The notes beneath the pieces were generated by a model, which had not been told where the DNA came from, ran no database searches, and saw only the letters and a program-made list of their open reading frames with translations. Source: an uncultured Clostridia bacterium (GTDB lineage: Bacteria; Bacillota; Clostridia; TANB77; CAG-508). Taken from it: a DNA stretch of 33,967 nt. This document shows, piece by piece, positions 4,007-32,832 of this stretch (positions are counted from its first letter, which is position 1; every line of letters starts with the position of its first letter). The position numbers were made by a program, and so were the translations under genes. The stretch is from assembly GCA_947628395.1 (NCBI GenBank), contig CANQZP010000004.1, positions 1 through 33,967 of the forward strand, given 5' to 3'.

Positions 4007-4012
4007 TCTAAA

Positions 4013-4045
4013 AAACAGATAAGTATGATGAATGCTTATCTGTTT
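4013..4045 (+). promoter_or_regulatory. Intercistronic stem-loop between pilin and sortase
   Basis: aaacagataag (4013-4023) / cttatctgttt (4035-4045) is a perfect 11-bp stem, extendable inward. No long U tract follows, so attenuator or processing hairpin is more likely than a full terminator. Confidence 0.5.
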
Positions 4046-4059
4046 GTGATATAACAATT

Positions 4060-4911: not shown

Positions 4912-4915
4912 AAAT

Positions 4916-11509: not shown

Positions 11510-12247
11510 ATGAAAAAAACAACATTGATAATGTTTAGAATAATATCTCTTATTATAATAATAATTTGCTTAATTTTTATATATAGATGGTATAAAAGTA
11601 ATGTTAGAAATAAGGAAATACAAGAAGAAGTTGGAGAATTTATTGATGTAGAAGATGTATCTGATGAAGATTTAGATGCACAAAAACTTATAATAAATTT
11701 TAAAGAATTAAAAGAAATAAACCCTGAAACTGTAGGATGGGTAAGAGTAAATAATACTAATATAGACTTTCCAATTGTACAACATTCAGATAATACTTAT
11801 TATTTAAAACATAATTTTTATAATGAATGGAATAATTCAGGATGGATATTTGCAGATTCTGAAAATTCATTCGAAACACTAGATAAAAACACTATAATAT
11901 ATGGACACAACATGAAAAATGGTGAAATGTTTGAGAATTTATCTTATTTACTAAATGATTCTTGGAATTTTGAAAAGGAAAATTTATATTTCTCTTTTGC
12001 AACAGAAAAAAAATCATATAAAGCTGAAATATTTTCAGTATATATGAAAAAAGCTACTCAATTACAAATACCAAGCGAATTTGAAGATAACGAAGAATTT
12101 CAAGAATATATTGAAGAAATAAAAAATTCAAGTATACATGATTTTGATATTGATATAAACAAAAAAGATGAAATTATTACACTATGCACTTGTGGAGATA
12201 CAAGTAAAAATAGAATAGTAGTTCATGCAAAACTTATAGAGCTTTAG
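11510..12247 (+). CDS. srtB: Class B sortase
   Basis: Single N-terminal TM, NPETVGWVRVNNTNIDFPIVQHSDNTYYLKHNF, NTIIYGHNM, extended helix before catalytic Cys, ITLCTCGDTSKNRIVVHAKL. Matches class B sortase family features. Confidence 0.9.
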   Translation: MKKTTLIMFRIISLIIIIICLIFIYRWYKSNVRNKEIQEEVGEFIDVEDVSDEDLDAQKLIINFKELKEINPETVGWVRVNNTNIDFPIVQHSDNTYYLKHNFYNEWNNSGWIFADSENSFETLDKNTIIYGHNMKNGEMFENLSYLLNDSWNFEKENLYFSFATEKKSYKAEIFSVYMKKATQLQIPSEFEDNEEFQEYIEEIKNSSIHDFDIDINKKDEIITLCTCGDTSKNRIVVHAKLIEL

Positions 12248-12282: not shown

Positions 12283-12311
12283 GTATGAGTCGCATTTTAA
12301 GCGACTCATAC
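12283..12311. terminator. Perfect 11-bp stem-loop in the leader of the giant ORF
   Basis: gtatgagtcgc (12283-12293) / gcgactcatac (12301-12311), 7-nt loop. Preceded by A7 and followed by A-rich sequence, so the canonical T-tract lies on the - strand side. Confidence 0.5.
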
Positions 12312-12421: not shown

Positions 12422-15400
12422 ATGAAAAAGGTGGAGAAGAAACAAATGCAAAAAAATTTAAATTTAAAATTTTTATTCTTAAAACTGTTAGTGATTTCTT
12501 TAATTATAGTCACTAGCATTTTTGTGATTAAAAGGAGAAATGAATTTAATAAAATTACTGATCCAGATATACTAAGAGCTATGAATTATAAGCAATTTAA
12601 TGATGACGATAAAAAAGTAGACAATACTGGTATTAATTTTATAGCATTTTTTGCAAAAGATTTAGATGGCGATGGAACAGCTGAAATGTTAAACGGTAGC
12701 AGTAGCCTAATTGAAAACACTCCAAACTTATATATGGATATCTCTATTTCTGGAGAAGGTAAATTAAAAAATGGAGAAATCACAATTCAAGGTAGTAATT
12801 TTACTTATAGTACAGCTCAACTTCCTGATTCGATTATTGGCGAAAAATATGTAGGTCAAACTTCAAAAATAAAATTAAACGAAGAAATACCAGGTGGGCA
12901 AAGTAAAATAATTGAAGGTAAAATTAAAGCTAGTTTAGATTTGCGTTCTACAAAAAATTATTCAGGAACAGGTAAAGTAACATTAAAAGGTACATATTAT
13001 GCTAGTGATGAAGATGAAACAGGAACACCTATTGAGAAAACGTTTGATTTAGTTACAGATTGGCATGGTATTTCAAAAACTACTTTAAAAGGTACAGGAG
13101 AAACTAATACTAATGGTGGAAAAGATTTAGTTAAGGAAAATGATTTAATATTAAGTCCAACTATAGAGATTAAAGAATCTGCAAATCAACTTATTCTTCA
13201 AAAACAAGTTTTAGAAGTTGAAATTCCAGAAATTAAAGGACATGCACCTACTGAAGTAACATGTCCTGAAGCAGGTGAAAGTTTCCAATATGATAGTGAA
13301 AATAGAAAAGTTACTATTACAAAAGAAGCAAATATTGATTTAGATGGAAATGTTATAACAAGTTTAGCAAGAACAAATAAATATAAATTAACAGTAAAAT
13401 ATCCAAAAGAAGCTTTTGATGAAATAGGAGGAAGTTCGTATTCAGTTTCATTTAATGCAAAAGGATGGAATTATTGTTTAAATAATCAAAATAAAGAATT
13501 TACAAGTCCACAAGTATCAAGCAATACATGTACTATTAGATACGGATTTGAGAATCCTAAAGGATCAACAATGAATGTTTTCCCTTCTATTCAAAGTACA
13601 ATAAGTAAAAGTCCTGTTATAGATGTATATGAAGGAAAAAGAGATGAAGAATATAAAGATACTTATAGAGTATCTTGGAGATGGCTAATTGGTGATAGCA
13701 CTCAAATTAAAGGTGAAACTACTCTTGAGCAAGATAAATATGATGAATTTGACAATACCCAATCTAATAACTTTGTAAAAACCACAAGCATCTACTTTAG
13801 TGGACAAGAGCGAGTATTAGGAGAAGATGGTACTATCACAGTTTATAATAAAGATGATGATAATGAACCAATAGTTACATTTACTAAAGATAATTGGGAT
13901 AAGAATTACGAATTAGAAGGAGATATTAACAATTTGAAATTTGTAATGAGTCAGCCTATAATAAGTAATTCTGAAATGTATATTTATCAAACAAAAGAGA
14001 TAGATGATTATGAAGTTAAGAATACTTTTGATTATGAAGAATTTGATGAATTAGAAAACATTTCTACTTATGTAAAATGTACATATGATAGTTTAGTAGT
14101 ATCAAAAGGAGTTTCTGCAAAATATTATGGACCATATTCATCATTTGATTATACTATTTCACCTTCAGAAATGACTAATGTAGAGCCACAAGATGTTACA
14201 TTTACAATCAAAGCAAATAAAGAAGAGAATTATTGCGAAGGATGGGTTAATGGACAATTTTTATTAGAATTACCAGATAGTATATTAAAAGCCAATGTAA
14301 CTGATGTTTCATCTAATAATGATAAAGTAACAATAGAATCTTGGAGTTCTTATAGAGAAAATAATAAAAATTATATAAAAATTGTAACAGATAATGATGA
14401 ACCAGAAACTTTTAATATAACAATAAAGAGTCAGCTTACAGCAAATCCTTTAATGGGAACAACAACGCTAAATCCAGCACTTTATGCATATAATGAAAAA
14501 TATGATCATTATAAAAATAAATCACAAGATAAATACGACTTAAATAATAATTTAAAGACAGACGACAAAATAGGATACAAAACAGCTTCATTATCTGTTA
14601 TGGCACCTAGTGGATTACAATCATCAGAATATGTAACTGAGTATAATAATGAAAAAGACTCAAGAGTTGATGCGCCAAATATTGCTGATATTGAAAAAAC
14701 TAGTGAAGAAATGAAAGCAAAAATCAATGTAGGTTTAGTTAGTAATTATACAGGAAATATAACAGATATCGTTGTTGTAGGAAATCTTCCTTATGAAAAT
14801 AATAAAGATTTAATTACTGGAAATAGCCTAAAATCTACATTTACACCTTCTTTAAAAAATGGAATAAATATACCAGAAGAATATAAACAAGGTACAACAG
14901 TTTACTATACAGAAGACGAAAGTGCAACACAAGTTATTGATAATAAATGGACAAAAGCAGAAGATGTAACAGATAAAAATTACTCTAGATTTAAGAAATA
15001 TTTAATTGATTTTGGAACTAGAAAAGTAAGTAATAAAGGAACAATAGATATTAACTATGAAGTAACAATACCAAATACCACTGGAGTAAATAGAGCTGCA
15101 TTTGCAAGTCATGCTGTGTATTATTCTCTAGAAACAGGTAATGGTAAAATACCAACTAAACTTTCTACTAATAAAGTAGGTATACAAGTAGTAGAAAAAT
15201 ATGAACTAACAGGTGGAAAAAATAAGAGAGGATATGAAAATGTTCTTGTTCCAGGAGCAACATATAATATTAGTTATCTAGATGCTAATGATGAGCTAGT
15301 TACAAAAATTGCTACTACAGATGATCAAGGAAAATTAGTATTTGAAGATTTATATATAGAAAAAGAATATACATTAAGAGAAATTTCAGCGTCTAAAGAT

Positions 15401-18400
15401 TTTGTTGTTAGTCCAGAAATCATTAAATTTAAGGTTGTAAAACAAGAAGACGGTACTTTAAAATATGAAATTATTAGTGTAGAAAATCAAGAAACAGGAG
15501 ATTTTAGAACTGCGCCAGAATTTAAAGAAGATGAGTCTGGAATGCCTATAATGGATACTAAAATAGACGATGAAGCAAGATACGATTTAAATATTAAAAA
15601 AGTAGAAAAAGATAGTACTACTCCAATCCCAGAAGTTAGATTTACTATAAAAGGAAAAGGACTAAATGAGACTTATAAATCTGATGAACAAGGTATTGTA
15701 ACATTCCCAGCATTAATACCTGGTGTAGAATATGAAATAAAAGAAACAACTGCTGATGGATATTATGTAATACAAGATCCAATAACATTTAGTCTTGTAA
15801 GAAATGAAGAAACTCATAAATTAGAATTTAAAACAGATAGTAAATATTTAAAAGATGTTACAGTAGATGAAAATAAAGAAGAAACATTTAGAACAATTGT
15901 AGATGCACAAATAGAGAACGAAAAAATTCCTTTATATAATCTAGAAATAATAAAAGTAGAAGAAGATTTAAAAGAAGCAAATATTGAGAAATTAGATAAA
16001 CTAGAAGGTGCTAAGTTCTCAGTAATTTATCAAGATGATGATTATGTAAAAGAATATACTACAAATCAAGATGGTAAGATTACCTTAGAAGGATTATATC
16101 AATATGTAGATGGAAAATATATAACAGGAAAATATACTATTATAGAAACTTTAGCTCCTTCTGGATATGCAAGCAATAATGAAGAAATAGTAATTAGTGC
16201 GCAAAAAAATACAGATGATGAGTTAGAAGTATCAATTGAAAATAGAGATAATTTAATATCTATAAGAGATATAGAAATTGAAGATGATACAGTTAAATTA
16301 TATTTACAAGATAAACCTTTATTTGAACTTAAGAAAAAAGATTCTGAAACAGGAAATCCTTTAGTTGCAGAGTTTATAATTTATGAAGTAGATGAAAATA
16401 GAAATATTATAGATTATGCAAAAGATACTTATGATGAATATGTAGGAACTAAAAATAGTGATGGAGATTATGTAGTAAAGACAGGAGAAGATGGAATAGT
16501 AAGACTTCCACTAAGAGGAGGAATATATAAAGCAGTAGAAGTAGTATATCCAGAGGGATATAGGAAAGATGTAGCAGAAAATTACTTTATAATTGGAAAT
16601 AAGAAAATGACAGAAGTAGAGGTAGAAGAAGAAGAACCAATTATAGGAACTGTAGACATTAATTATATAGAAGATTTAGTTGATTTAGCGAAATTTGTAA
16701 ATGATGGTGATAATTATAAAGGCTATGAAGTAAGATTAATGAGAAATCTGGATTTCAAAGATCCTGGTTCATACAAGAACTATGAAAGAACAGATTATGG
16801 AGATTTAAATGGTGATGAAGAGCCTCAAACTATTATGGAAGAACTTACAAGTATAGAAGGCACAGGATTTACTCCAATTGGAACTAGAACTGTTAATCAA
16901 GGAAAGGTACTTCCATTTTCAGGAGTATTTAATGGACAAGGTCATGAAATTTCAAACTTATATATGAAATTGCCAGAAGAATCTACAAATAGCTACGGTT
17001 TCTTTGGATATACAGAAAATGCTAAAATATTAAATTTGAGCATGTCAGGTACAATATCAGGTCACCAATATATTGGAGGAATTATTGGAGAAGCTAGAGG
17101 AAACTGTGTAATAGATAATGTATGTAATAAAGTTAATATATCAGATTCACAATATGTTGGAGGAATTATTGGATGGGTATATCAAGAGGGAAGCGAGAAA
17201 CATACAATCAAAATAAGCAATTCTCATAATGAAGGAGATATAGAAAATTTTGCTTATGGCGGTGGAATAATTGGATATATAATGAATGGATCACAAGATT
17301 TATTAACAATAGAATTATCAAACTGTTATAATTCAAAAGAAATAAACTCTGGAACTAATAGTTCTTATATAGGAGGACTTATAGGTTATGATTATAATGC
17401 TAACTTAATATTTGAGAACTGTTACAATACAGGAAATATATTTGCTAATTCTGGAGCAAATGAAATAGGAGGACTTTTAAGTGGTACTTATAATGGTAAC
17501 TTGATATTAGAAAACTGTTACAATACAGGAAATATAGTTGCTGATTCTATAGTAAATCAAATAGGAGGACTTATAGGTCAAAGTAATAATGCAACATTTA
17601 AAGATTGCTATAATGAAGGAAATATAAGTTCTAATAACGAAATATCTATACAAGCTGTAGGTGGTTTCATAGGTACTGATTCTAGTAATACTACTATGAA
17701 ATTTGAAAAATGTCATAATTCAGGAGAAATAAATATTATATCAAATGATGTAGGAGGATTTATTGGTCAATCATATGGAAACTCAAATTTTGAATTTATA
17801 GATTCATTTAATGAAGGTAATATTACTTCTACACTCCGTATAGGAGGTTTTGTAGGAAGTCAATCAAATGGAAAAACAAAAATTATAAATTCATATAATA
17901 ATTCAGAACTAAAGAAAATGGAAGGAAAAAATGGGGATACCTCTATAGGAGGATTTGTTGCATCCTGCGGAGGAGATTATGAAATAACTAACTGTTATAA
18001 TTCTGGAAAAATAGAAGGAGATATTTTAGGTAATGGATCTGTTGGAGGACTTATTGCAAATTCTGGAAGTGGAAATGGAAAAATAAGTGATAGCAAAAAC
18101 TTAGCTGAAATTGAAATTGGAATGGCAGAATATATAGGAGGTATATTTGGTCAAAATTATGGCAGTTCATTAGAGATTTATAATAGCCATAATGAAAGCA
18201 ATATAACAGTAGGAGGAGAATCATCAAACACTAATAACAGCTATCGTTATATTGGTGGAATTATAGGTTTGGGTAGTTGTCCTACTAAAATTAATTCTTG
18301 TTATAATACTGGAACTATAACTAATAAAAGGAGTCAAATAAGTGGTTATGATTATATTGGTGGTATTGAAGGTATAAATAGATATCCAGGTTATTTAAAA

Positions 18401-21400
18401 GATGTTTATAATACTGGAAATATAATTAATAATAATTCATCTAACGTTTATATTGCAGGTGTAGTTGGAGCAAGTTATGGTGGAGGATATTATAAAAAAG
18501 TTTATAATACAGGTAATATAAATACTACAAATGGTGCTAGTTCTGATGTAGGAGGTATAGTTGGAAATTTAAATACAAAAATGAGTTTTATTGACATAGA
18601 AAATAAAGGGAATATTGATGTAAATGAAATTACAGGTGGAAGTAGTTCATATATAGGAGGAGTAATAGGACAAGATACAGGAGGCTCATCTGTAGAATAT
18701 ACTCGTAATAGTGGAAAAATAAATATAACTTCAAAAAGTAATGTCCAAAACTATATAGGTGGTATATTAGGATTTCATTATGGAACACTTTCTAATTCAT
18801 ATAATACAGGAAGTATTCATGCAAATCGTGGAGAAAGTGAAGAGGAAACTCCTTGCACATTTTATGCAGGTGGACTTATAGGACATTGTTCATCAGGAGA
18901 AAATAAAACTATTAGTGATTGCTATAATAAAGGAGAAGTTATTATTCAAAGTAAATCTATATCTACATCTAGTCAAAATTATATAGGTGGACTATTTGGA
19001 CAGAATATAGGATATAGTGTAAGTAATTGTTATAATATAGGTAAAGTATCAGCTTTAAATATCGACGGTCAAGCATACACTGGTGGTATATCAGGTCAAA
19101 TCAGTGGAAATATTACAAAATGTTATAATATTTCAAACATAGAAGTAACGGCTAGTAATATGGTATATTCTGGAGGTATTATTGGTCTTACAAGTGGTAG
19201 CGGTAAAATATCTGAATGTTATGATGTTGGAAATATATCTGCTAATAGTACTACTAATTGTGTTTATGTTGGTGGCGTAGCTGGAAATAATCTATGCAAT
19301 ATTGAAAATTGTTATCAATCAGGAACTATAAATGCTACAGGTGCAAGTGGTTCTGGAAATTATATAGGTGGAATAACTGGACTTAGCCCATCAAATGGTA
19401 ATATTAGTGGATGTATACATAAAGGAGATATAACTGTTAATACGAAGACACCTGCATATATTGGTGGAATTAATGGTAATTTAGTAGGAGGAAAAGTATC
19501 TAACTCTAAAAATACAGGAAATATAACAGGAGCAGGCGTAGGAAGCGTATATATAGGTGGAATTAATGGTAATGCTACAGTTAGTACAGAAAATTGTAGT
19601 AATGAAGGTAATATTATTGGTACTTCCACAGGTCAGGGATGTTATGGAGGAATAAATGGACAAATATCTGGACTTATTAATGTTACAAATTGTAGCAATA
19701 CAGGTAACGTTACAGGAACATCTGCATCGCCTAGCTATGTAGGTGGTATTAATGGAGCTTTACATGGTAGTAAGCCTGAGAATGTTGTAAGTGAATGTAA
19801 TAACTCAGGTAAAATAGAAGGTGATTCATCAAGTGCTTATGTTTTTGTTGGAGGAATTAATGGTCAAGCAACATCACCAGTAAAGTCTTGTAAAAACATA
19901 GGATATATAGTATCTGAATCGAAATTAGAATCAGAAACTGTTGGTGCGCCACCTAGATATGTTGGAGGAATAAATGGTCAACTTAATGGTGCAAGTGTCT
20001 CAGAATGTAATAATACAGGTAAAGTAAATGTAACATCTACAGGTGAAGTATATATCGGAGGAATTAATGGTCAAAATCAAGGAGGAGCAGTTTCAAATTC
20101 GAATAATATAGGTGATATTGAAGGATTATCAACTCAAGCACCTGTATATTCTGGTGGTATTAATGGAAAACAATCTAATATAACAAGCGGTTCATATAAT
20201 AGTGGAAATATAAAATCAACTTCAAAAGTTGTTGTATATTCTGGTGGTATAACAGGATTATTAGAAAAATCAAGTCGTATAACAGATTCTAATAATAAAG
20301 GAAATATAGAATCAACAGTTACTAACGAAACACCAACTGAATATGTTGGTGGTATTGTCGGATATATTGGAGATAGTAATCCTGAAGCAGTAAGTAATTG
20401 TTATTACTTAAGTTCTATTACTATAAAGGGTAATCCAAAAAATGAATATGGAACAAGCAAAGAAACAATAGAAGATAATAATATTGATAAAAATATAACT
20501 ACTCCAGATATTGAAGATAATTACAAAGAATTATCAGAAGTTGTAAAGGATAACAATTGGAAAGAAAATTCAGAATCTGAAGATGGATATCCAGAATTAA
20601 AATTTGATATCCCAGTAGTAGAAAAAGTATTAACAGTAAGTTCTATAGATGATTTAGTAAATTTAGCAATTTCAATAGAAGACGGAGAAACATATGCTGG
20701 AGAGAAAATTACTTTAACTAAAGACTTAGATTTTAATGATAAAGAAGAATTAAAATCTAACTTTACAGGAATTGGAACTCAAAGAATATTTAGTTTTTAT
20801 GGAGAATTTGATGGACAAGACTTTACAATAAAACATGCACCTACCTCAATATTTAGATATGTAATTGGTGGAAATATACATAATCTTAACGTTAAAGATG
20901 GGGGGTCAATAGTTGATACTGGTGAAGAAGTAACTATATCAAATTGTTCTTTTGAGGGTAATGTAACTTCTATACTTAATGTTTCTACAGGTGGTATTGC
21001 TAATACTGTAAGTAATAATTCAACTATAGAAAATTGTTATACAAAAGGAACTGCAACAAATCTCAATGGAGGAATTGTAGGTAGTGTTACAGGTGGCGGT
21101 ACAATTAAAGATTGTCACAATGAAATGGAAATAACAAGTAATATGTCTACAGGTGGTATAAGTGGATCTGGAGGAACAATAATAAATTGTTATAATACAG
21201 GAGATATAACAGTTGAAAGAGGTATGAGTAATTCTAATGGATCTGGAGGTGCAAGTGCAGCTGGAATTGTAGTAGGAAATGCTACAATATATAATTCACA
21301 TAACTTAGGAGATATTTCTGTTAAGAGTTCATTAACTGCGAATAGTTCAACAGATGTACATGTATCTGTAAGTGCAGGTGGAATATGTTCTTCTGGAACA

Positions 21401-24400
21401 GCTATAAACTGCTATAATACAGGAACAATTACTGCAGAAGGAAGTGCTACATGGACTGATTCTAGAAATAGTGGAAGAGGCTCTCATTACTGTTATGTAT
21501 ATTGTGGTGGAATATCAGGTAGTGGTAGTGCAGAAGATTCATATAATAGTGGAATAGTAAAATCTAAATCAAGTTTTACATTAACAACCACTAACACTAA
21601 TAGCGGTTTACTTAAAGGCGATGCGCGAAGCTTTGCAGGAGGTGTTGTTGGAGAATTTAGCAATACAATTACAAGATGTTATAATTCAGGTGTAGTTACA
21701 AGTGAAGCAAATACTCCAAGTAAAAATGTATTTACATATAGCTTGGCAGGAGGTGTTGCTGGTTACACAGGTAATAACGCGATTATAAATGATTGTTACA
21801 ATACTGGAGATGTTACAAGTAATAATACTACTAACGTTAATAAAGCAAATAGTGATTATTATTCTTATGAAGATATATCTGGTGCTGGAGGTATATTGGG
21901 AGGCTTTGATATTAATAGGGCTCAAAATACAAATGTAAGTAATTCATATAATACAGGAGATCTAACTGCAGAAGCAAGTAAAGAAGGAATAAATTATGCT
22001 GGACCTATTATTGGTACTATAATAAATAGCCAAGGTTATATTACAGATGAAACAAATAGATTTGGATTAGAAAATAATATTGATAATTCATATTATTTAG
22101 ATAGTAAAAAAATAGATAGTACAAATAAGAATGAATTTGGAATACCAGCGTCAGACTACGATTTAAGAAGCGAAGCATTATATAATAAATTAAATGTAGA
22201 CAATATATGGCTTCATGACGGAAGAAATTATCCTACTTTACCTAAAGTAATTTTATCAGAATTATCAGAAGGTACTTCAATTGATATTAAAAATACACAA
22301 GCAACATACTTCATTCACGCATCATACACAGGAGAAGGTAGTATAAAAATTGATGAAGATCCTACAGAAGCTGAAAATCCTGTAGATGTAGAAGAAAGAA
22401 AATATGGTGAAAGCAATACTAAGAAAATAACAATAACACCAGCTGAAGGTTATACTATTAGTAGTATTACAATAAATGGTGAACCTGTAAATCTTACAGA
22501 AGAAGAAAAAGAATTATTTGTAATAGAGCCTAATCACTTTACAAATATAGATGAAGATAAAAACATAGTTATAACATTTACAAATATAAAGAAAATGTTT
22601 ACAATTGAGAAAAAAGGTGAAGATGATAAACCTCTTGAAAATGCAACTTTTGAAATTGTAAATAAAGAAAATGAAAAAGATAAATACACTGTAGTAACAG
22701 ATAAAGAAGGAAAAGCAGAAGTAATAGTTAAAGATTATGGAACTTATACTGTAAAAGAAACAGTAGCACCAGAACATTATATATTATCTGATAAATCAGA
22801 AGATATTACTCTATCAGCAGAAAAAAATGATTCACAATTAATATCATTTGATAATACTAAAAAAGCTACATTAACAGTACATCATTACTTAAAAAATACA
22901 CAACATAGAGTAGCACCAGATCAAGTATCTGAAGGAAATCCAGAAGATACATACACAACATTACCACATTATGATTTAGATGGATTAGAATTAGCAAAAG
23001 ATGAAAGTGGTGAATACATACTTCCTAAAGAAACTTCTGGTACTTATGGAAGTGAATCAAAAGAGATTGAATATTTCTATGAACCAAAAGAAGTAGAATT
23101 ATTAATACATCACTACAGAGAGGGAACAGAAGAAGAAGTACATGAAGATACAGTTGAAAAATTCCAAGGTGAAGTAACATTTAGCCAAAATGATGAAAGT
23201 TACAGTATTAATACAAATAGTCCATATAATCCAAGTGGAAATAAAGAATACTTAGAATTATTAGATAAATATATTTGTACAGGTTTAAGTTTCACAGATA
23301 AAATTACTGATGAGACTACAGATAAAAATGTAGAAGAACAAATTAATATTACAGGAAGTAGTGAACTTACATATTATTATATAGACAGAGAATATGACAT
23401 AACTACAAAGATTAAGAAACATACAGAAAATGTATTTGATATAATGTCTGGAAGTATGAAAGATGTAGATGTTGAAGGTGGAGAGATAACCGGAGATTAT
23501 ACTAAGGAATATACTGAAGAAGAAGGTATTAAATACGTTGAAACAGTAAAAATAGATGAAAATCAAGAAAACGTAATAAATATTAAACCTAATGAAACTT
23601 ATGATATAAAATCTATAAAAGTTACAAGTGGAGAAAAACCAGAAGAAACTATATATGAAAAAGATACTAAAGAAGATAATGCAGGATATACAAAATTAGA
23701 TGATGGAAGTATAAATATTAATAATTTCCAAAAAGTACGTGAGGATAAATTAGTAGTTGCTGAATTTGAAAGAAAACAAGGAAATGTAATTATTCATCAT
23801 AAATTAAAAGGATCTGAAAAACCAGTTCCATCAAAAACAGGTGAAACAGTTGGAGATAAAACACTTAAAGGATATGTTGGTGATGAATATATTGCATATG
23901 CAAGTGAAGATGTATCTATTCTATATAAAGTAGATTCAGTTGATGGTGATGTTAATGGAGAATATAGTGAAGAACAGAAGGAAGTAACATATTATTATGT
24001 ATTAAAAGATGCAGAAATTACACATACTCTTGAAAAAGAAGCACCAGAATTCTTAACAGAAGAAGGCGGAAAAGTTAAATACGAAATTAAATATAATGCG
24101 ACAATAAAAGACTTTAAAGGAAATGCAACAATTACAATAGAAGATACTCTTCCATACAAAATTGATAAAGATAATTCTGATTTAGCTGAAGGAGACTACA
24201 ATGGAGATAAGACTATAACATGGACAATAAAAGAAAATGAGATAGATACTGAGAAAGCTCAAGAAGCTAAAACTATATCTATAACAAAGACAATATATGT
24301 TACTTATAAAGATGATAGTATGCCTGTAATAGGTGAGATAGTAAATCATGTAAAAACTAAAATTCACCTAGATACAACTGAGCAAGATAAAGAAACTGAA

Positions 24401-27400
24401 AAAGATTCAGAACCATCAAAACTAGACTATAAGATAGATATAAGTGGAACAAAAACTTGGGAAGATAATGAAACTCAGAAGAAAAGAAGACCAGAAAATA
24501 TCACTATAGAATTATTAAGAGATGGAACAAAAATTGCTGAAAAAACAATAGATAATAGTGATAATGCTAAATATGATTTTGAACAATTACAAAAATATGA
24601 TGCAGAAGGAAGAGCTTATAATTACACAGTAAAAGAAAAAGAAGAATCACATTTCTATACTCCAAGTGTAGAAGGATATAATATAAAAAATAAATTCACA
24701 AGGCCAGAAGATAAGAAAGATATAACAGCTAAAGTTGTATGGGAAGATGAGCAAGATGAATACGGAGAAAGACCAGACAGTGTTAAAATTAAAATTAAAG
24801 ACGGAGAAGAAGAAGTAGAAACAGTTACAGTAACAGAAGAAGAAGGCTGGCAACATACATTTAATGAATATGTGTATAATGAGAATGGTGAAGAGATAAC
24901 TTATACGATTGACCAAGAAGAGTCTTCTCCTGGTGAATTGAAATATTATCATACTGATATAGATAATACTAAGTATGTAATTACAAATACATTAAATGAT
25001 GTACAGATAGATCAAGAACTAACAAAGACAGCTGTTCCAACAGTAACTAATGAGGAAGAACCAATAGAATATACAATTACATATCATGGAGTAATTAAAG
25101 ACTTTGAAGGAGATGCAGAAATTAAAATAGTAGATACTCTTCCTTATGAGATAGATGAAGATGGTTCAAGTATAGGTGATGGACATTATGATAAAGACAA
25201 GAAGACTATAACATGGACTGAAACAAGGAAAAATATTAACACTAAAGAAAAAGGTCAAGACGAAGTTATTGATATTACCAAAACAATAAAAGTACTTTAT
25301 AAAGATATAAATGTAATAGCTCCGATAGTTAACCAAATAGAAGGTACAGCAACATTTAGCACTACACCTAGAGAGAAAAAAATCGAGCCAAAACCTACAG
25401 AAATTACTCCAGATTATAAAGTTAGTATAAGCGGAACAAAAACTTGGGAAGACAATGATACACAGAAGAAAAGAAGACCAGAAAATATCACTATAGAATT
25501 ATTAAGAAATGGAACAAAAATTGCTGAAAGAGTAATAAATAATAGTGATAATGCTACATATGATTTTGGAGAATTACAAAAATATGATGAAAAAGGAATA
25601 GCATATAATTATACAGTAAGAGAAAAAGAAGAATCACATTTCTATACTCCAAGTGTAGAAGCGGGAACATATAACTTAAAAAATAAATTCACAAGACCAG
25701 AAGATAAGAAAGATATAACAGTTAGAGTTGTATGGGAAGATGAGCAAGATAGATATGAGGAAAGGCCAGACAGTGTTGAGGTTAAAATTAAAGATGGAGA
25801 AAAAGTAGTAGAAACAGCTACAGTAACAAAAGATGAAAGCTGGAAACATACATTTAATGTATATGTATATAATGAAAATGGTGAAGATATAACTTATACA
25901 ATTGACCAAGAAGAGTCATCTCCTGGTGAATTGAAATTCTATCATACTGATATAGATAATACTGAGTATGTAATCACAAATACGTTAAATGATGTACCAA
26001 TAGATCAAGAGCTAGAAAAGACAGCTGTTCCAACAGTAACTAATGAGGAAGAACCAATAGAATATACAATTACATATCATGGAGTAATTAAAGACTTTGA
26101 AGGAGATGCAGAAATTAAAATAGTAGATACTCTTCCTTATGAGATAGATGAAGATGGTTCAAGTATAGGTGATGGACATTATGATAAAGACAAGAAGACT
26201 ATAACATGGACTGAAACAAGGAAAAATATTAACACAGCAGAAGATGGCGAAGAAGTAATTGATATTACAAAAACAATAAAAGTACTTTATAAAGATATAA
26301 ATGTAATAGCTCCAATAATCAATAAAATAGAAGGTACAGCAACATTTAGTACTACACCTAGAGAGAAAAAAATCGAGCCAAAACCTACAGAAATTAATCC
26401 AGATTATAAAGTTAGTATAAGCGGAACAAAAACTTGGGAAGATAATGATACTCAGAAGAAAAGAAGACCAGAAAATATCACTATAGAATTATTAAGAGAT
26501 GGAACAAAAATTGCTGAAAGAACAATAGATAATAGTGATAATGCTAAATATGATTTTGGAGAATTACCAAAATATGATGCAGAAGGAAGAGCTTATGAAT
26601 ATACAGTAAAAGAAAAAGAAGAATCACATTTCTATACTCCAAGTGTAGAATCTGGAACATATAACTTAAAAAATAAATTTACAAGGCCAGAAGATAAGAA
26701 AGATATAACAGCTAGAGTTGTATGGGAAGATGAGCAAGATAGATATGGGGAAAGACCAGATAGTGTTAAGATTAAAATTAAAGATGGAGAAAAGGTAGTA
26801 GAAACAGCTACAGTAACAAAAGATGAAGAATGGCAACATACATTTAATGTATATGTGTATAATGAAAATGGTGAGGACATAACTTATACAATTGATGAAG
26901 AAGAATTTACTAAAGAAGATTTGAAGTATTATACTATAGATGTAAATAATGGAACATACACTATTACAAATACCCTAAATCATGTTAATACAAATCAAGA
27001 ATTAGTAAAGACTGGACCTGAAAAAATTACTAAAGAGGGAGAAGCTATTGAATATAATATTAAGTATAATGCAACAATAGATGACTTAAAGGGAAATGCA
27101 ACAATAAAGATTATAGATACTCTTCCATATAAAATAGATAGTTCAAAATCTCAGATAGCTGAAGGAGATTATGATGAAACAAATAAGACTATAACATGGA
27201 CTAAGATATTAGAAAATGTTGATACAGAAGCAGATGGCCCTCAAACAGTTGAAATTAATAAAACAATAAGATTATATTACAAAGATATAAATGTTGTAGA
27301 ACCGATAGTTAACAGAATAAAGAGTGAAGTTACTTATAGTAGCAGTCCACAGAAAGATGAAATAACACCTGATCCTACAGAAGTTATACAAGATTATAGA

Positions 27401-30400
27401 ATTTCAATACCTGTAAGGAAGATATGGACAGAAACTACAGATAAACAAAAACTGAAGAGACCAGAAAAAATTACAGTACAATTACTAAATGGAGATACAG
27501 TAGTTGATTCACATGATTTAGCTACAACTGATAATTTAGAGTATACATTTGAAAACTTACCAAAATATGATAAAAATGGTCAAGTTATAGACTATAAAAT
27601 CAAAGAGGTTGATTCAGGAAAATTCTATACTCCTGAAATTAACGGAAATAAAGATACTGGATTCGTTCTAAATAATGTGTTTGGAATAGACTCTAAACTA
27701 AATATAGATGCTAAAGTTGTATGGCAAGACGAAAATAATAGATATAGTGTAAGACCAAACAGCGTAATTATAGTAATAAAAGATGAAAAAGGAAATGAAC
27801 AAACACAGACAGTAACAGATAGAGATGGATGGCATCATGAATTTGTATTAGATGAGTATGATGAAAATGGAGACGAAAAGACTTATGTAATTGGTGAAAA
27901 AGAGGTACATGAAGGTGAGTTGAAATATTACAAGATAGACTTAAATAATGAAAACTTTACAATTACAAATACATTAAATGATGTAGGTATAGATCAAACT
28001 TTACAAAAAGACGGACCAGATAGAATTACTGACGAGGGAGAGGCTATAGAGTATACAATTCATTATCATGGAACAATAAATAACTTAAAGGGAAGTGCTA
28101 CAATAGAAATAGTAGATACATTGCCTTATGAGATAGAAATTGGTTCTGATATTAATGGAGCAAGATATGACGAAACTAATAAGACATTAACATGGACAGA
28201 AAGAATTGATAATATTGATACAGAAGCAAATGGACCAAGAGATATTGATATAACTAAAATTATTAAAATCCATTACAAGAATTTAAATGTAGTAGGAAAA
28301 ATCGCAAATAATGCAAAAGCTACAGCTAAGTTTAATGTTACACCAAGAGAATATCCAGTAGATGCAAAAGTAAAAGAAACAGAGCAAGATTATAGAATCT
28401 CAATACCTGTAACAAAGAACTGGACAGAAACTACAGAAAAGCAAAAAGAGAAGAGACCACAAAGAATAACATTAGAGGTATTAAATGGTGAAACAGTAGT
28501 AGCATCACAAGATTTGGATACAAAAGATAATTTAGAGTATTCATTTGATGACTTACCAAAATATGATCAAGAAGGAAATGAAATAAAATATACAGTAAGA
28601 GAGAAAGAATCTGGATATTTCTATAGAGCAGAAGTAAGTGGAAGTCAAAACGCAGGATACACTGTAAATAATATATTTACAAAACCAAAAGATAAGGTAA
28701 AAGTAGATGCTAAGATAGAATGGGAAGACAATGATAATGAAGAAGAAACAAGACCAGACAAAGTAGTTGTTGTAGTAAAAGATGAGACAGGAAAAGAAGA
28801 AAGACAGACAGTAACTAAAGATGATGATTGGCATTATGAATTTACGCTAGATAAATATGATGAAAATGGTGACGAAAAGAAATATGCAATAGATGAAGAA
28901 GAGAAGAATCCAGGAGACTTAAAATATTATTCAAAAGAAGTGGATGATACTACATATACTATAACAAATACTCTTGGAGATAATGAAAAATCAATTACAG
29001 TAAACAAGGTATGGAATGATAATAATAATTTATATGAAAGAAGACCATCAAGTGTAATAGTAGAATTATATGGCGATGGACAAAAAGTACAAGAAAAGCT
29101 AATAACTCAAAGAGATAATTGGCAATGTACATTTGATAAATTAAAGAATATAAATTATAAGACAGATTCAGAAATTGTATATACAGTACAAGAAAAAGAA
29201 GCAGTAAAAGGTGATTTGAAATTCTACCAAGGAGTAATAGAAGGATACACAATAACAAATAACTTTAGAGTCCCAGACGATACAGAAGATATAGTAGTAA
29301 GAAAAGAATGGACAAGAGATGAAGAATACAAAAACGAATATAGACCAAAAAGTATAGTAGCAATTCTATATGGAGATGGGGTAGAAGTAGCAAGAGGAGA
29401 AATAACAGCAGCAAATGGATGGCAATATACATTTAAACCAAGAAAATATAATGAAGTGACAGGAAAAGAAATTGTATATACAATAGATGAGACAGAGAAA
29501 AACGAAGGAGAACTATCGGCATATACTAAGAGCATAAGTGGATTCTTAATCAAGAACAAATTTACATTAATAGATCCTAAATATGAATGTGAAATAGAAA
29601 AAGACGGACCAGATGCGATAACATCAAGAGATGAGGTATTAAATTATTCAATAAGATATCAAGCAAAAGTAGATGATTATGAAGGAGATGCAAAGGTATT
29701 AATTGTAGATGAATTACCATACGAGATAGATGAAGCAAGGTCAAACATAGGCGGAGGAGTTTATGATAGAGAGAAAAAGACAATAACATGGACAGAAGAA
29801 ATAAAAGACATAAATACATTTGAATATGGAACTAGAATCATAGACTTCACAAAGAATTTCAGAGTGGTATTCAAAGATATAGATATAACAAAAGCAAAAT
29901 TAGTAAATAAGGCACATGGCGAGTTATATTTAGGAAAAGAGCCAATTGTAATAGAAGCAGAATCAAAGGAAACAGATGTAAAATTGAAATTTAATCTAGA
30001 TGTAGAAAAGGATATAGTAAGAATATTACTAAATGGCCAAGATGTACAAATAAGTGATCCAAAACTATCAAAAGTAGCAGTACATAGAAAAGAAGTAAAT
30101 AATGCGCAAATACAAGCAGAATATGTAATAAGAGTAATTAATACAGAAAGCTTAAGTGGAGAGGCAACAATAGTAGATGAGTTACCAAAAGATATGAGGT
30201 TTGTAGCAGAAGAAAGTGATCCAAGATGGGTAGTAAGTGAAGGAGGAAAACTAAGAGCAAAAACAGGAAACATACTACCAGGAGAAAGTACAGAGCTAAG
30301 AGTAGTAGTAAAATGGATCGGAGGAGAAGATACATTTGGATTAAAATCTAACACAGCATATTTAGAAGAGTTAAAAGGAGAAGGCGATTTTAAAGAAGCA

Positions 30401-30553
30401 AATGATGAGGACAACAAAGATACAGCAGAATTACTAATTGAAATTAAGACAGGTGATAAAACTTTAATATTAATGTCAGTTGGATTATTGATAGTACTAG
30501 TAGAACTAGGAGCTATAGGATTAATTTCAAGAAAAAGAAAAGATGACAAATAA
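12422..30553 (+). CDS. Giant modular cell-surface adhesin (6043 aa): SpaA-like, GLUG, MucBP-like and Cna_B/DUF11-like domains
   Basis: Uninterrupted 18,132-bp ORF. RBS aaaggag upstream, N-terminal hydrophobic segment, DLDGDGTAE loop, GLUG motifs (YIGGIIG... NCYNTGNI), HHYLKNT/IHHYREG MucBP-like motifs, repeated KTWEDN...RRPENITIELLRDG and VVWEDEQD...YVITNTLND Cna_B motifs, C-terminal EIKTGD, TM and RKRKDDK. Confidence 0.95.
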   Translation: MKKVEKKQMQKNLNLKFLFLKLLVISLIIVTSIFVIKRRNEFNKITDPDILRAMNYKQFNDDDKKVDNTGINFIAFFAKDLDGDGTAEMLNGSSSLIENTPNLYMDISISGEGKLKNGEITIQGSNFTYSTAQLPDSIIGEKYVGQTSKIKLNEEIPGGQSKIIEGKIKASLDLRSTKNYSGTGKVTLKGTYYASDEDETGTPIEKTFDLVTDWHGISKTTLKGTGETNTNGGKDLVKENDLILSPTIEIKESANQLILQKQVLEVEIPEIKGHAPTEVTCPEAGESFQYDSENRKVTITKEANIDLDGNVITSLARTNKYKLTVKYPKEAFDEIGGSSYSVSFNAKGWNYCLNNQNKEFTSPQVSSNTCTIRYGFENPKGSTMNVFPSIQSTISKSPVIDVYEGKRDEEYKDTYRVSWRWLIGDSTQIKGETTLEQDKYDEFDNTQSNNFVKTTSIYFSGQERVLGEDGTITVYNKDDDNEPIVTFTKDNWDKNYELEGDINNLKFVMSQPIISNSEMYIYQTKEIDDYEVKNTFDYEEFDELENISTYVKCTYDSLVVSKGVSAKYYGPYSSFDYTISPSEMTNVEPQDVTFTIKANKEENYCEGWVNGQFLLELPDSILKANVTDVSSNNDKVTIESWSSYRENNKNYIKIVTDNDEPETFNITIKSQLTANPLMGTTTLNPALYAYNEKYDHYKNKSQDKYDLNNNLKTDDKIGYKTASLSVMAPSGLQSSEYVTEYNNEKDSRVDAPNIADIEKTSEEMKAKINVGLVSNYTGNITDIVVVGNLPYENNKDLITGNSLKSTFTPSLKNGINIPEEYKQGTTVYYTEDESATQVIDNKWTKAEDVTDKNYSRFKKYLIDFGTRKVSNKGTIDINYEVTIPNTTGVNRAAFASHAVYYSLETGNGKIPTKLSTNKVGIQVVEKYELTGGKNKRGYENVLVPGATYNISYLDANDELVTKIATTDDQGKLVFEDLYIEKEYTLREISASKDFVVSPEIIKFKVVKQEDGTLKYEIISVENQETGDFRTAPEFKEDESGMPIMDTKIDDEARYDLNIKKVEKDSTTPIPEVRFTIKGKGLNETYKSDEQGIVTFPALIPGVEYEIKETTADGYYVIQDPITFSLVRNEETHKLEFKTDSKYLKDVTVDENKEETFRTIVDAQIENEKIPLYNLEIIKVEEDLKEANIEKLDKLEGAKFSVIYQDDDYVKEYTTNQDGKITLEGLYQYVDGKYITGKYTIIETLAPSGYASNNEEIVISAQKNTDDELEVSIENRDNLISIRDIEIEDDTVKLYLQDKPLFELKKKDSETGNPLVAEFIIYEVDENRNIIDYAKDTYDEYVGTKNSDGDYVVKTGEDGIVRLPLRGGIYKAVEVVYPEGYRKDVAENYFIIGNKKMTEVEVEEEEPIIGTVDINYIEDLVDLAKFVNDGDNYKGYEVRLMRNLDFKDPGSYKNYERTDYGDLNGDEEPQTIMEELTSIEGTGFTPIGTRTVNQGKVLPFSGVFNGQGHEISNLYMKLPEESTNSYGFFGYTENAKILNLSMSGTISGHQYIGGIIGEARGNCVIDNVCNKVNISDSQYVGGIIGWVYQEGSEKHTIKISNSHNEGDIENFAYGGGIIGYIMNGSQDLLTIELSNCYNSKEINSGTNSSYIGGLIGYDYNANLIFENCYNTGNIFANSGANEIGGLLSGTYNGNLILENCYNTGNIVADSIVNQIGGLIGQSNNATFKDCYNEGNISSNNEISIQAVGGFIGTDSSNTTMKFEKCHNSGEINIISNDVGGFIGQSYGNSNFEFIDSFNEGNITSTLRIGGFVGSQSNGKTKIINSYNNSELKKMEGKNGDTSIGGFVASCGGDYEITNCYNSGKIEGDILGNGSVGGLIANSGSGNGKISDSKNLAEIEIGMAEYIGGIFGQNYGSSLEIYNSHNESNITVGGESSNTNNSYRYIGGIIGLGSCPTKINSCYNTGTITNKRSQISGYDYIGGIEGINRYPGYLKDVYNTGNIINNNSSNVYIAGVVGASYGGGYYKKVYNTGNINTTNGASSDVGGIVGNLNTKMSFIDIENKGNIDVNEITGGSSSYIGGVIGQDTGGSSVEYTRNSGKINITSKSNVQNYIGGILGFHYGTLSNSYNTGSIHANRGESEEETPCTFYAGGLIGHCSSGENKTISDCYNKGEVIIQSKSISTSSQNYIGGLFGQNIGYSVSNCYNIGKVSALNIDGQAYTGGISGQISGNITKCYNISNIEVTASNMVYSGGIIGLTSGSGKISECYDVGNISANSTTNCVYVGGVAGNNLCNIENCYQSGTINATGASGSGNYIGGITGLSPSNGNISGCIHKGDITVNTKTPAYIGGINGNLVGGKVSNSKNTGNITGAGVGSVYIGGINGNATVSTENCSNEGNIIGTSTGQGCYGGINGQISGLINVTNCSNTGNVTGTSASPSYVGGINGALHGSKPENVVSECNNSGKIEGDSSSAYVFVGGINGQATSPVKSCKNIGYIVSESKLESETVGAPPRYVGGINGQLNGASVSECNNTGKVNVTSTGEVYIGGINGQNQGGAVSNSNNIGDIEGLSTQAPVYSGGINGKQSNITSGSYNSGNIKSTSKVVVYSGGITGLLEKSSRITDSNNKGNIESTVTNETPTEYVGGIVGYIGDSNPEAVSNCYYLSSITIKGNPKNEYGTSKETIEDNNIDKNITTPDIEDNYKELSEVVKDNNWKENSESEDGYPELKFDIPVVEKVLTVSSIDDLVNLAISIEDGETYAGEKITLTKDLDFNDKEELKSNFTGIGTQRIFSFYGEFDGQDFTIKHAPTSIFRYVIGGNIHNLNVKDGGSIVDTGEEVTISNCSFEGNVTSILNVSTGGIANTVSNNSTIENCYTKGTATNLNGGIVGSVTGGGTIKDCHNEMEITSNMSTGGISGSGGTIINCYNTGDITVERGMSNSNGSGGASAAGIVVGNATIYNSHNLGDISVKSSLTANSSTDVHVSVSAGGICSSGTAINCYNTGTITAEGSATWTDSRNSGRGSHYCYVYCGGISGSGSAEDSYNSGIVKSKSSFTLTTTNTNSGLLKGDARSFAGGVVGEFSNTITRCYNSGVVTSEANTPSKNVFTYSLAGGVAGYTGNNAIINDCYNTGDVTSNNTTNVNKANSDYYSYEDISGAGGILGGFDINRAQNTNVSNSYNTGDLTAEASKEGINYAGPIIGTIINSQGYITDETNRFGLENNIDNSYYLDSKKIDSTNKNEFGIPASDYDLRSEALYNKLNVDNIWLHDGRNYPTLPKVILSELSEGTSIDIKNTQATYFIHASYTGEGSIKIDEDPTEAENPVDVEERKYGESNTKKITITPAEGYTISSITINGEPVNLTEEEKELFVIEPNHFTNIDEDKNIVITFTNIKKMFTIEKKGEDDKPLENATFEIVNKENEKDKYTVVTDKEGKAEVIVKDYGTYTVKETVAPEHYILSDKSEDITLSAEKNDSQLISFDNTKKATLTVHHYLKNTQHRVAPDQVSEGNPEDTYTTLPHYDLDGLELAKDESGEYILPKETSGTYGSESKEIEYFYEPKEVELLIHHYREGTEEEVHEDTVEKFQGEVTFSQNDESYSINTNSPYNPSGNKEYLELLDKYICTGLSFTDKITDETTDKNVEEQINITGSSELTYYYIDREYDITTKIKKHTENVFDIMSGSMKDVDVEGGEITGDYTKEYTEEEGIKYVETVKIDENQENVINIKPNETYDIKSIKVTSGEKPEETIYEKDTKEDNAGYTKLDDGSININNFQKVREDKLVVAEFERKQGNVIIHHKLKGSEKPVPSKTGETVGDKTLKGYVGDEYIAYASEDVSILYKVDSVDGDVNGEYSEEQKEVTYYYVLKDAEITHTLEKEAPEFLTEEGGKVKYEIKYNATIKDFKGNATITIEDTLPYKIDKDNSDLAEGDYNGDKTITWTIKENEIDTEKAQEAKTISITKTIYVTYKDDSMPVIGEIVNHVKTKIHLDTTEQDKETEKDSEPSKLDYKIDISGTKTWEDNETQKKRRPENITIELLRDGTKIAEKTIDNSDNAKYDFEQLQKYDAEGRAYNYTVKEKEESHFYTPSVEGYNIKNKFTRPEDKKDITAKVVWEDEQDEYGERPDSVKIKIKDGEEEVETVTVTEEEGWQHTFNEYVYNENGEEITYTIDQEESSPGELKYYHTDIDNTKYVITNTLNDVQIDQELTKTAVPTVTNEEEPIEYTITYHGVIKDFEGDAEIKIVDTLPYEIDEDGSSIGDGHYDKDKKTITWTETRKNINTKEKGQDEVIDITKTIKVLYKDINVIAPIVNQIEGTATFSTTPREKKIEPKPTEITPDYKVSISGTKTWEDNDTQKKRRPENITIELLRNGTKIAERVINNSDNATYDFGELQKYDEKGIAYNYTVREKEESHFYTPSVEAGTYNLKNKFTRPEDKKDITVRVVWEDEQDRYEERPDSVEVKIKDGEKVVETATVTKDESWKHTFNVYVYNENGEDITYTIDQEESSPGELKFYHTDIDNTEYVITNTLNDVPIDQELEKTAVPTVTNEEEPIEYTITYHGVIKDFEGDAEIKIVDTLPYEIDEDGSSIGDGHYDKDKKTITWTETRKNINTAEDGEEVIDITKTIKVLYKDINVIAPIINKIEGTATFSTTPREKKIEPKPTEINPDYKVSISGTKTWEDNDTQKKRRPENITIELLRDGTKIAERTIDNSDNAKYDFGELPKYDAEGRAYEYTVKEKEESHFYTPSVESGTYNLKNKFTRPEDKKDITARVVWEDEQDRYGERPDSVKIKIKDGEKVVETATVTKDEEWQHTFNVYVYNENGEDITYTIDEEEFTKEDLKYYTIDVNNGTYTITNTLNHVNTNQELVKTGPEKITKEGEAIEYNIKYNATIDDLKGNATIKIIDTLPYKIDSSKSQIAEGDYDETNKTITWTKILENVDTEADGPQTVEINKTIRLYYKDINVVEPIVNRIKSEVTYSSSPQKDEITPDPTEVIQDYRISIPVRKIWTETTDKQKLKRPEKITVQLLNGDTVVDSHDLATTDNLEYTFENLPKYDKNGQVIDYKIKEVDSGKFYTPEINGNKDTGFVLNNVFGIDSKLNIDAKVVWQDENNRYSVRPNSVIIVIKDEKGNEQTQTVTDRDGWHHEFVLDEYDENGDEKTYVIGEKEVHEGELKYYKIDLNNENFTITNTLNDVGIDQTLQKDGPDRITDEGEAIEYTIHYHGTINNLKGSATIEIVDTLPYEIEIGSDINGARYDETNKTLTWTERIDNIDTEANGPRDIDITKIIKIHYKNLNVVGKIANNAKATAKFNVTPREYPVDAKVKETEQDYRISIPVTKNWTETTEKQKEKRPQRITLEVLNGETVVASQDLDTKDNLEYSFDDLPKYDQEGNEIKYTVREKESGYFYRAEVSGSQNAGYTVNNIFTKPKDKVKVDAKIEWEDNDNEEETRPDKVVVVVKDETGKEERQTVTKDDDWHYEFTLDKYDENGDEKKYAIDEEEKNPGDLKYYSKEVDDTTYTITNTLGDNEKSITVNKVWNDNNNLYERRPSSVIVELYGDGQKVQEKLITQRDNWQCTFDKLKNINYKTDSEIVYTVQEKEAVKGDLKFYQGVIEGYTITNNFRVPDDTEDIVVRKEWTRDEEYKNEYRPKSIVAILYGDGVEVARGEITAANGWQYTFKPRKYNEVTGKEIVYTIDETEKNEGELSAYTKSISGFLIKNKFTLIDPKYECEIEKDGPDAITSRDEVLNYSIRYQAKVDDYEGDAKVLIVDELPYEIDEARSNIGGGVYDREKKTITWTEEIKDINTFEYGTRIIDFTKNFRVVFKDIDITKAKLVNKAHGELYLGKEPIVIEAESKETDVKLKFNLDVEKDIVRILLNGQDVQISDPKLSKVAVHRKEVNNAQIQAEYVIRVINTESLSGEATIVDELPKDMRFVAEESDPRWVVSEGGKLRAKTGNILPGESTELRVVVKWIGGEDTFGLKSNTAYLEELKGEGDFKEANDEDNKDTAELLIEIKTGDKTLILMSVGLLIVLVELGAIGLISRKRKDDK
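15196..16610 (+). other. Tandem SpaA/Cna_B-like prealbumin domains in the giant adhesin
   Basis: YDLNIKKVEKDSTTPIPEVRFTIKG...YEIKETTADGYY; YNLEIIKVEEDLKE...YTIIETLAPSGYA; FELKKKDSETGNPL...YKAVEVVYPEGYR. These are E-box-like ends. Confidence 0.75.
16650..20460 (+). repeat. GLUG repeat array 1 (about 34 units)
   Basis: Opens with DINYIEDLVDLAKFVNDGDNYKGYEVRLMRNLDFKD...FSGVFNGQGHEISNLYM. Then 34 hand-counted [YVD]xGG[ILVF]xG motifs alternating with xCYNTGNI. Confidence 0.85.
20632..22264 (+). repeat. GLUG repeat array 2 (about 10 units)
   Basis: A second opener (VSSIDDLVNLAISIEDGETYAGEKITLTKDLDFNDK...GIGTQRIFSFYGEFDGQDFTI) followed by NCYTKG/STGGISG-type units. Confidence 0.8.
22866..24010 (+). 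other. MucBP-like domains (three)
   Basis: LTVHHYLKNTQHRVAPDQ...EIEYFYEPK; LLIHHYREGTEEEVHEDT...LTYYYIDR; VIIHHKLKGSEKPVPSKT...VTYYYVLKD. Confidence 0.7.
24011..28981 (+). repeat. Five composite tandem modules (990, 993, 990, 999, 999 bp): DUF11-like + Cna_B + Cna_B
   Basis: Unit starts at about 24011, 25001, 25994, 26984 and 27983. Each has IEYTITYHGxIKDFxGDAxIxIVDTLPYxID, then a KTW/KxWTE Cna_B unit, then a VVWxDExxRYxxRP Cna_B unit ending ITNTLND. Confidence 0.9.
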
Positions 30554-31972: not shown

Positions 31973-32045
31973 TGAGCCATAGAGGATTCGAACTTCCGAG
32001 CGTCAGATTAAGAGTCATTTGCTCTAATAACTAAGCTAATGGTGC
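31973..32045 (-). pseudogene. Degenerate tRNA-Lys(CTT)-like sequence (pseudo-tRNA)
   Basis: Reverse complement GCACCAT-TA-GCTT-AGTTATTA-GAGC-A-AATGA-CTCTTAA-TCTGA-CGCTC-GGAAG-TTCGAAT-CCTCT-ATGGCTC-A has exact 73-nt tRNA spacing and anticodon CTT. Anticodon stem is 2/5 paired, acceptor 5/7, G18G19 absent, no encoded CCA. Confidence 0.6.
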
Positions 32046-32175
32046 ATGATTTACTATATATAATCAATTTTACCATGATTAAAATTGACTTTTATAAAAA
32101 AATATGCTAAAATATTACTAAAGTATGAATAATATTCAAAAAATATCATATAATAGTAACAAGGAGATGATAACA

Positions 32176-32823: not shown

Positions 32824-32832
32824 GAGAGGGAT

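What the first reader, a model, noticed from the sequence alone, without database searches (positions are those of the whole stretch)
12422..30553. 18.1-kb single ORF encoding a 6043-aa adhesin with an unusual domain mix
One uninterrupted frame combines SpaA-like domains, two separate GLUG solenoid blocks, MucBP-like domains, five ~330-aa DUF11/Cna_B modules and a sorting signal. GLUG, MucBP and Cna_B are each established surface-protein families. Their combination at this length, next to its own class B sortase, looks like a dedicated long-reach adhesin system. That role is inference.
Basis: partly seen in the sequence, partly recalled or inferred. Interest (0 to 1): 0.8.

Follow-up and report, generated by a model that had tools for sequence, protein, structure and literature searches.

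The report
Giant two-ended bacterial surface fibre protein
This 6,043-residue gene is real and belongs to a widespread, apparently undescribed family of giant surface proteins of uncultured gut Clostridia; members share the same outline but carry one of two exchangeable display blocks, and they look held to the cell at both ends rather than by a partner sortase next door.

Summary
In detail: one open frame at 12422-30553, with four SpaA domains, two GLUG blocks (the part modelled is a predicted beta-helix), SpaA/MucBP-like domains, twelve Cna_B domains in a repeated stalk, and a C-terminal transmembrane tail. The "unusual one-off" reading does not hold. The unannotated first ~925 residues define a family found in 65 of 243 genomes of the host's family, up to nine copies per genome, with open frames up to 7,428 aa. 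The order is fixed: head, SpaA x3-5, cassette, hinge, SpaA/MucBP, stalk, tail. The cassette is either a propeller-like repeat array (73 ORFs) or GLUG (8 ORFs), never both, and GLUG is scattered on the head tree (one-clade tree rejected, p=0.0005). "Its own class B sortase" is not supported: none of 65 other loci with at least 1.5 kb upstream has one, and here it lies 4 bp behind an LPLTG protein. Two features stand out: the tail motif is [IV]xTG, without the LPXTG proline, and the N-terminus looks like an uncleaved signal anchor in 89 of 90 giants, unlike ~1,700-aa sister proteins. A mid-chain cassette at the apex of a doubly tethered loop is the most novel reading; unproven. Copy number needs long reads.

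The parts
12422..30553 (+). giant surface protein ORF, 6043 aa
12473..12529 (+). N-terminal hydrophobic helix (aa 18-36), apparent uncleaved signal anchor, no A-x-A site after it
12539..15196 (+). family-defining head region (aa 40-925), string of beta-sandwich domains; no Pfam or PDB sequence match
15200..16636 (+). four SpaA domains (aa 927-1405)
16649..17059 (+). N-cap of GLUG block 1 (aa 1410-1546)
17069..20491 (+). GLUG block 1, ~33 repeats (aa 1550-2690); aa 1405-1959 modelled, predicted beta-helix
20627..22291 (+). GLUG block 2 with its own N-cap (aa 2736-3290), ~6 repeats by profile
22373..22585 (+). conserved post-cassette hinge domain (aa 3318-3388)
22589..24010 (+). SpaA domain followed by MucBP-like domains (aa 3390-3863)
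24011..29992 (+). stalk: six DUF11-like and twelve Cna_B domains (aa 3864-5857)
25024..25242 (+). 219-bp exact repeat, copy 1 (assembly caution)
26017..26235 (+). 219-bp exact repeat, copy 2
29993..30442 (+). membrane-proximal DUF11-like region (aa 5858-6007)
   Evidence: sequence; resembles the C-terminal part of the ~1,700-aa paralogues
30443..30454 (+). IKTG: proline-less TG motif (aa 6008-6011)
30464..30526 (+). C-terminal transmembrane helix (aa 6015-6035), followed by a K/R-rich end
11510..12247 (+). class B sortase (TIGR03064, 191.5 bits, cut-off 153.75); adjacent, probably not dedicated to the giant
6070..11505 (+). 1,811-aa VWA/laminin-G-like surface protein ending LPLTG, 4 bp upstream of the class B sortase
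12283..12311 (-). 11-bp perfect hairpin in the gap between sortase gene and giant (T-run on the minus strand only)

Best explanation
The ORF is one member of a widespread family of giant fibre-like surface proteins of uncultured gut Clostridia. Exported through an N-terminal hydrophobic helix, it is built from rigid beta domains: a ~900-residue string of beta-sandwiches, SpaA domains, an exchangeable display cassette (here a GLUG beta-helix), a hinge, SpaA/MucBP-like domains and a long Cna_B/DUF11-like stalk that ends in a TG-motif transmembrane tail. The cassette most likely meets ligands (glycan, mucin or another surface) and the stalk gives reach and strength. Shown: architecture, family, conserved tail, one cassette slot with two alternative fillings. 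Predicted: beta-helix. Inferred: surface location, ligand binding, isopeptide bonds, anchoring chemistry. The neighbouring class B sortase most likely serves the LPLTG protein next to it rather than this protein.
For: Head family in 30 of 96 relatives and 65 of 243 family genomes and in 79 loci, some of whose titles name gut sources such as sheep ileum, chicken and sheep rumen. Same domain grammar in ~60 giants. Cassette is propeller-like or GLUG, never both. GLUG scattered on the head tree: 3 changes, one-clade AU p=0.0005. GLUG block predicted as beta-helix, pLDDT 89, pTM 0.90, with weak fold matches to IgA1 proteases. Stalk Cna_B matches the B region of the collagen adhesin Cna (1d2p, E=8.6e-41); the K, E and N positions typical of isopeptide bonding are kept in most of the twelve domains. 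Tail motif AD[LV]II[SGA][IV]xTG + TM + K/R shared with ~1,700-aa paralogues.
Against: No ligand, expression or localisation data. The GLUG fold match is weak (E about 0.006). Head Foldseek hits are only generic beta-sandwich strings (TM about 0.17). No known adhesive domain of Pfam was detected.
Confidence: 0.8

Rival explanations
1. Doubly tethered loop: the N-terminal helix is an uncleaved signal anchor and the C-terminal TG tail is a second anchor (membrane, or wall if a sortase acts), so the chain projects as a loop with the cassette near its apex and the so-called head near the membrane. (A refinement of the best explanation, not exclusive of it.)
For: 89 of 90 giants lack an A-x-A site just after the helix; a cleavage-site matrix gives giants a median of 3.2 (window -0.3) against 9.5 for 25 signal peptides from paralogues and PxTG proteins of the same bacteria. 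Some giants have 40-115 residues before the helix. Only the two end helices are strongly hydrophobic in the 6,043 residues.
Against: Score distributions overlap (73 of 78 giants exceed the weakest control); cleavage sites for controls were assigned by rule; a non-standard peptidase site is not excluded.
Confidence: 0.4
2. Classical adhesin: the signal is cleaved and the protein hangs by its C-terminus only, the N-terminal head being the distal binding part, as usual in Firmicutes fibrillar adhesins.
For: Adhesive domains of Firmicutes fibrillar adhesins lie mostly at the N-terminus (PMC8286594); the head is the conserved part of the family.
Against: No recognisable cleavage site in nearly all members; the part that is swapped is the cassette, not the head.
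Confidence: 0.4
3. Dedicated sortase pair: the adjacent class B sortase anchors this giant through the IKTG motif.
For: Adjacent on the same strand, 174 bp apart; divergent class B-like sortases in L136 and L141 lie beside proteins with proline-less TG motifs.
Against: No class B sortase beside any other giant; the sortase follows an LPLTG gene by 4 bp; class B sortases of relatives often lie next to PxTG proteins.
Confidence: 0.12
4. Assembly product: repeats have created or changed the ORF.
For: 219-bp exact repeat in the stalk; many relatives break at contig ends inside the stalk.
Against: The outline matches dozens of independent assemblies; other exact repeats are at most 70 bp.
Confidence: 0.08

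Closest known systems
Fibrillar adhesins / FA-like proteins of Firmicutes (PMC8286594)
   Same: long chain of SpaA and Cna_B stalk domains, C-terminal membrane tail with TG motif
   Different: no listed adhesive domain found; no LPXTG; swapped cassette in mid-chain; apparent N-terminal signal anchor
Staphylococcus aureus collagen adhesin Cna, B region (PDB 1d2p)
   Same: Cna_B repeats of the stalk
   Different: no collagen-binding domain matched; far longer; mixed with DUF11-like domains
Giant1-5 proteins of Apilactobacillus kunkeei (PMC12863079)
   Same: 3,000-8,000-aa surface proteins, four of the five with a beta-solenoid, long repeats, several per genome, solenoid exchange between lineages
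   Different: N-terminal solenoid similar to serine-rich repeat proteins, N-terminal signal peptide, sortase not mentioned in that paper; homology was not tested
GLUG-type beta-helix of IgA1 (M26) proteases
   Same: beta-helix with a weak fold match
   Different: no protease domain matched in the giant
~1,700-aa paralogues in the same genomes (e.g. G000:C1, L128)
   Same: head-like N-terminal region (150-240 bits) and the same TG tail; DUF11 repeat in the one tested
   Different: ordinary signal peptide; too short for the SpaA block, cassette and Cna_B stalk

Membership tests
Fibrillar adhesin (FA-like) | repeated stalk domains | tested here: met
   SpaA and Cna_B
Fibrillar adhesin (FA-like) | at least one known adhesive domain | tested here: not met
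   Over the Pfam cut-off only SpaA, Glug and Cna_B, plus a MucBP-like hit just below it; GLUG does not occur in the cited study
Fibrillar adhesin (FA-like) | binds a surface or ligand | not testable with these tools
   needs experiment
LPXTG sortase substrate | LPXTG-type motif with proline | tested here: not met
   EIKTGD; no anchor model matched
LPXTG sortase substrate | TG followed by transmembrane helix and positive tail | tested here: met
LPXTG sortase substrate | cleavable signal peptide | tested here: inconclusive
   no A-x-A site; matrix score -0.3 against control median 9.5, with overlap across the family
Dedicated class B sortase-substrate pair | conserved gene neighbourhood | tested here: not met
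   no class B sortase beside any other giant
GLUG-repeat protein | GLUG motif repeats | tested here: met
   75 bits over a 20.5 cut-off; AlphaFold2 model is a beta-helix

The most novel reading that the evidence does not exclude
A family of bacterial surface proteins held at both ends (uncleaved N-terminal signal anchor plus a proline-less [IV]xTG C-terminal anchor) that show an exchangeable beta-propeller or GLUG beta-helix cassette at the apex of a giant loop.
Probability: 0.3. Interest if true: 0.75.

Novelty: new variant of a known kind. Interest (0 to 1): 0.5.

Why it matters
Uncultured gut Clostridia devote much coding space to these giants (up to nine copies in one genome), yet no sequence model names the head and I found no paper on them. 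The cited survey of fibrillar adhesins reports that nearly half have no known anchor and suggests undiscovered anchor motifs (PMC8286594); a conserved proline-less [IV]xTG tail and an apparent signal anchor are concrete, testable candidates. A single cassette slot filled by two unrelated folds is a natural experiment in how one stalk changes its target.

Tried and rejected
PDB sequence searches with the head and the GLUG block: no match. Foldseek of the head: integrin alpha and complement chains, but TM about 0.15-0.2, so only 'string of beta-sandwiches' is taken from it. Riboswitch upstream of the giant: none in Rfam. Promoter scan: at the chance level. A permissive -3/-1 signal peptidase test did not discriminate, because it counted alanines inside the hydrophobic core (61 of 90 giants passed); I relied instead on a stricter rule and a weight matrix; the choice of test was therefore partly made after seeing results. 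AU test with 72 heads did not finish; repeated with 28 chosen rows and a simpler model. Literature searches for GLUG with sortase or adhesin, proline-less sorting signals, and giant proteins of these Clostridia gave no description of the family.

Full report
1. The observation. The frame 12422-30553 is open over 6,043 codons; chance gives that about once in 10^264. Pfam finds SpaA, GLUG and Cna_B well over their cut-offs, and MucBP just below it. Local profiles, built from the window and re-built once from their hits, read: head - SpaA x4 - N-cap - GLUG x33 - N-cap - GLUG x6 - hinge - SpaA - MucBP x2 - hinge-like - MucBP - (D11-Cna-Cna) x4 - D11-Cna x4 - D11 - tail. 'DUF11' is a resemblance; no curated model matches it in the window protein.

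2. Assembly. The longest exact repeat is 219 bp (25024 and 26017), the next 70 bp. The frame is unlikely to be chimeric, because dozens of separate assemblies show the same outline, but the number of stalk modules could be wrong.

3. A family. The first 925 residues have no Pfam, NCBIfam or PDB sequence match. They occur in 30 of 96 relatives (this count includes the ~1,700-aa paralogues), in 65 of 243 genomes of the family at E<=1e-20 (mostly giants, with some paralogues), and in 79 loci of a species-wide collection, all records of uncultured Clostridia or Firmicutes, several titles naming gut sources. One relative (G005) has nine. Among complete ORFs in hand the window is the longest, but longer open frames exist (7,428, 6,212 and 6,137 aa), so its length is not exceptional.

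4. Exchangeable cassette. After the SpaA block, 73 ORFs carry a propeller-like repeat array (units of the type DGxIIKYxxxGxVEWAKxIGG), often 12-14 or 4-7 units, which fits two propellers or one; 8 carry GLUG; one carries neither; none carries both; 20 are too short to tell. These ORFs include some identical pairs, because the same genome was fetched from two collections. The propeller reading rests on the repeat pattern and weak Pfam propeller hits; no propeller was modelled. On the head tree GLUG needs three changes, and holding the GLUG heads together is rejected (p=0.0005, 28 rows, LG+G4). The window, L049 and L111 group together. Either cassettes have been exchanged, or both are old and were differentially kept.

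5. Structure. Part of the GLUG region (555 aa with its N-cap) is predicted as a beta-helix with high confidence (pLDDT 89, pTM 0.90), read from the regular short strands and the fold matches; handedness was not measured. Weak PDB matches include IgA1 proteases. The head is predicted as an all-beta string (pLDDT 84, pTM 0.67) without a specific solved relative. The DxDGDG-like segment near aa 79-85 is well conserved and might bind calcium; that is inference.

6. The sortase. The neighbour is a true class B sortase. No other locus with a giant has one (65 with at least 1.5 kb upstream), whereas class B sortases occur elsewhere in the relatives' genomes (38 of 58 genomes). Where I read those places, many sit beside proteins ending in TPATG, TPKTG, NPGTG, LPDTG or LPKTG, and some have no such neighbour. 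In the window the sortase starts 4 bp after an LPLTG gene. The two giants with a canonical motif (L125, the same gene as L047: LPLTG; L103: IPDTG) have a class C sortase directly downstream. So, on two examples, a canonical motif goes with an adjacent sortase, and the IxTG type does not.

7. The tail. A motif AD[LV]II[SGA][IV]xTG directly before a transmembrane helix and K/R is shared by most complete giants and by the ~1,700-aa paralogues; in the window's own genome three proteins have it. Conservation of T-G suggests function, possibly as a sorting signal without proline, but a last beta-strand plus plain membrane anchor is not excluded.

8. The N-terminus. Of 90 giants with a hydrophobic helix, one has an A-x-A site just after it. 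Most paralogues and PxTG proteins of the same bacteria have ordinary sites. The weight matrix separates medians (3.2 against 9.5; window -0.3) but distributions overlap. I lean towards an uncleaved signal anchor; it is not shown. If true, both ends are tethered and the cassette, in mid-chain, would be the outermost part.

9. Verdict. The gene is real; 'unusual one-off with its own sortase' is replaced by 'member of a modular giant family'. Interest lies in the cassette slot, the proline-less tail and the possible double tether.

Noticed in passing
window 2369-5704: Pilus-like cluster: pilin backbone-like protein ending LPSTG, class C sortase (NF033745, 273 bits) and a small pilin-like protein ending IPKTG.
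   Followed up: partly
window 6070-11505: 1,811-aa protein with weak VWA and laminin-G-like hits ending LPLTG; pilus tip-like, directly before the class B sortase.
   Followed up: partly
window 32125-33783: AbiEi/AbiEii type IV toxin-antitoxin pair (PADLOC 130 and 343 bits) at the contig end.
   Followed up: yes
window 30717-31874: 385-aa protein without any Pfam or PADLOC match, directly downstream of the giant.
   Followed up: partly
window 31973-32045 (-): Rfam tRNA match just over its cut-off (31.3 bits against 29); ARAGORN finds none.
   Followed up: no
L136:6811-9330 and L141:2851-9631: Divergent class B-like sortases next to a signal peptidase-like gene (S26 by Pfam in L136) and surface proteins with proline-less TG motifs (VINTG, ALTG, VLTG, AITG); possibly a pilus type with unusual sorting motifs.
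   Followed up: partly
L036, L040, L044 (genome G005): Giants possibly in tandem: a frame ending in the same [IV]xTG tail lies directly upstream of the giant.
   Followed up: no
G000:C1:22050-22199: A third protein of the same genome (1,659-aa frame) with the [IV]xTG tail.
   Followed up: no
L113: A giant whose cassette is neither propeller-like nor GLUG by my profiles.
   Followed up: no
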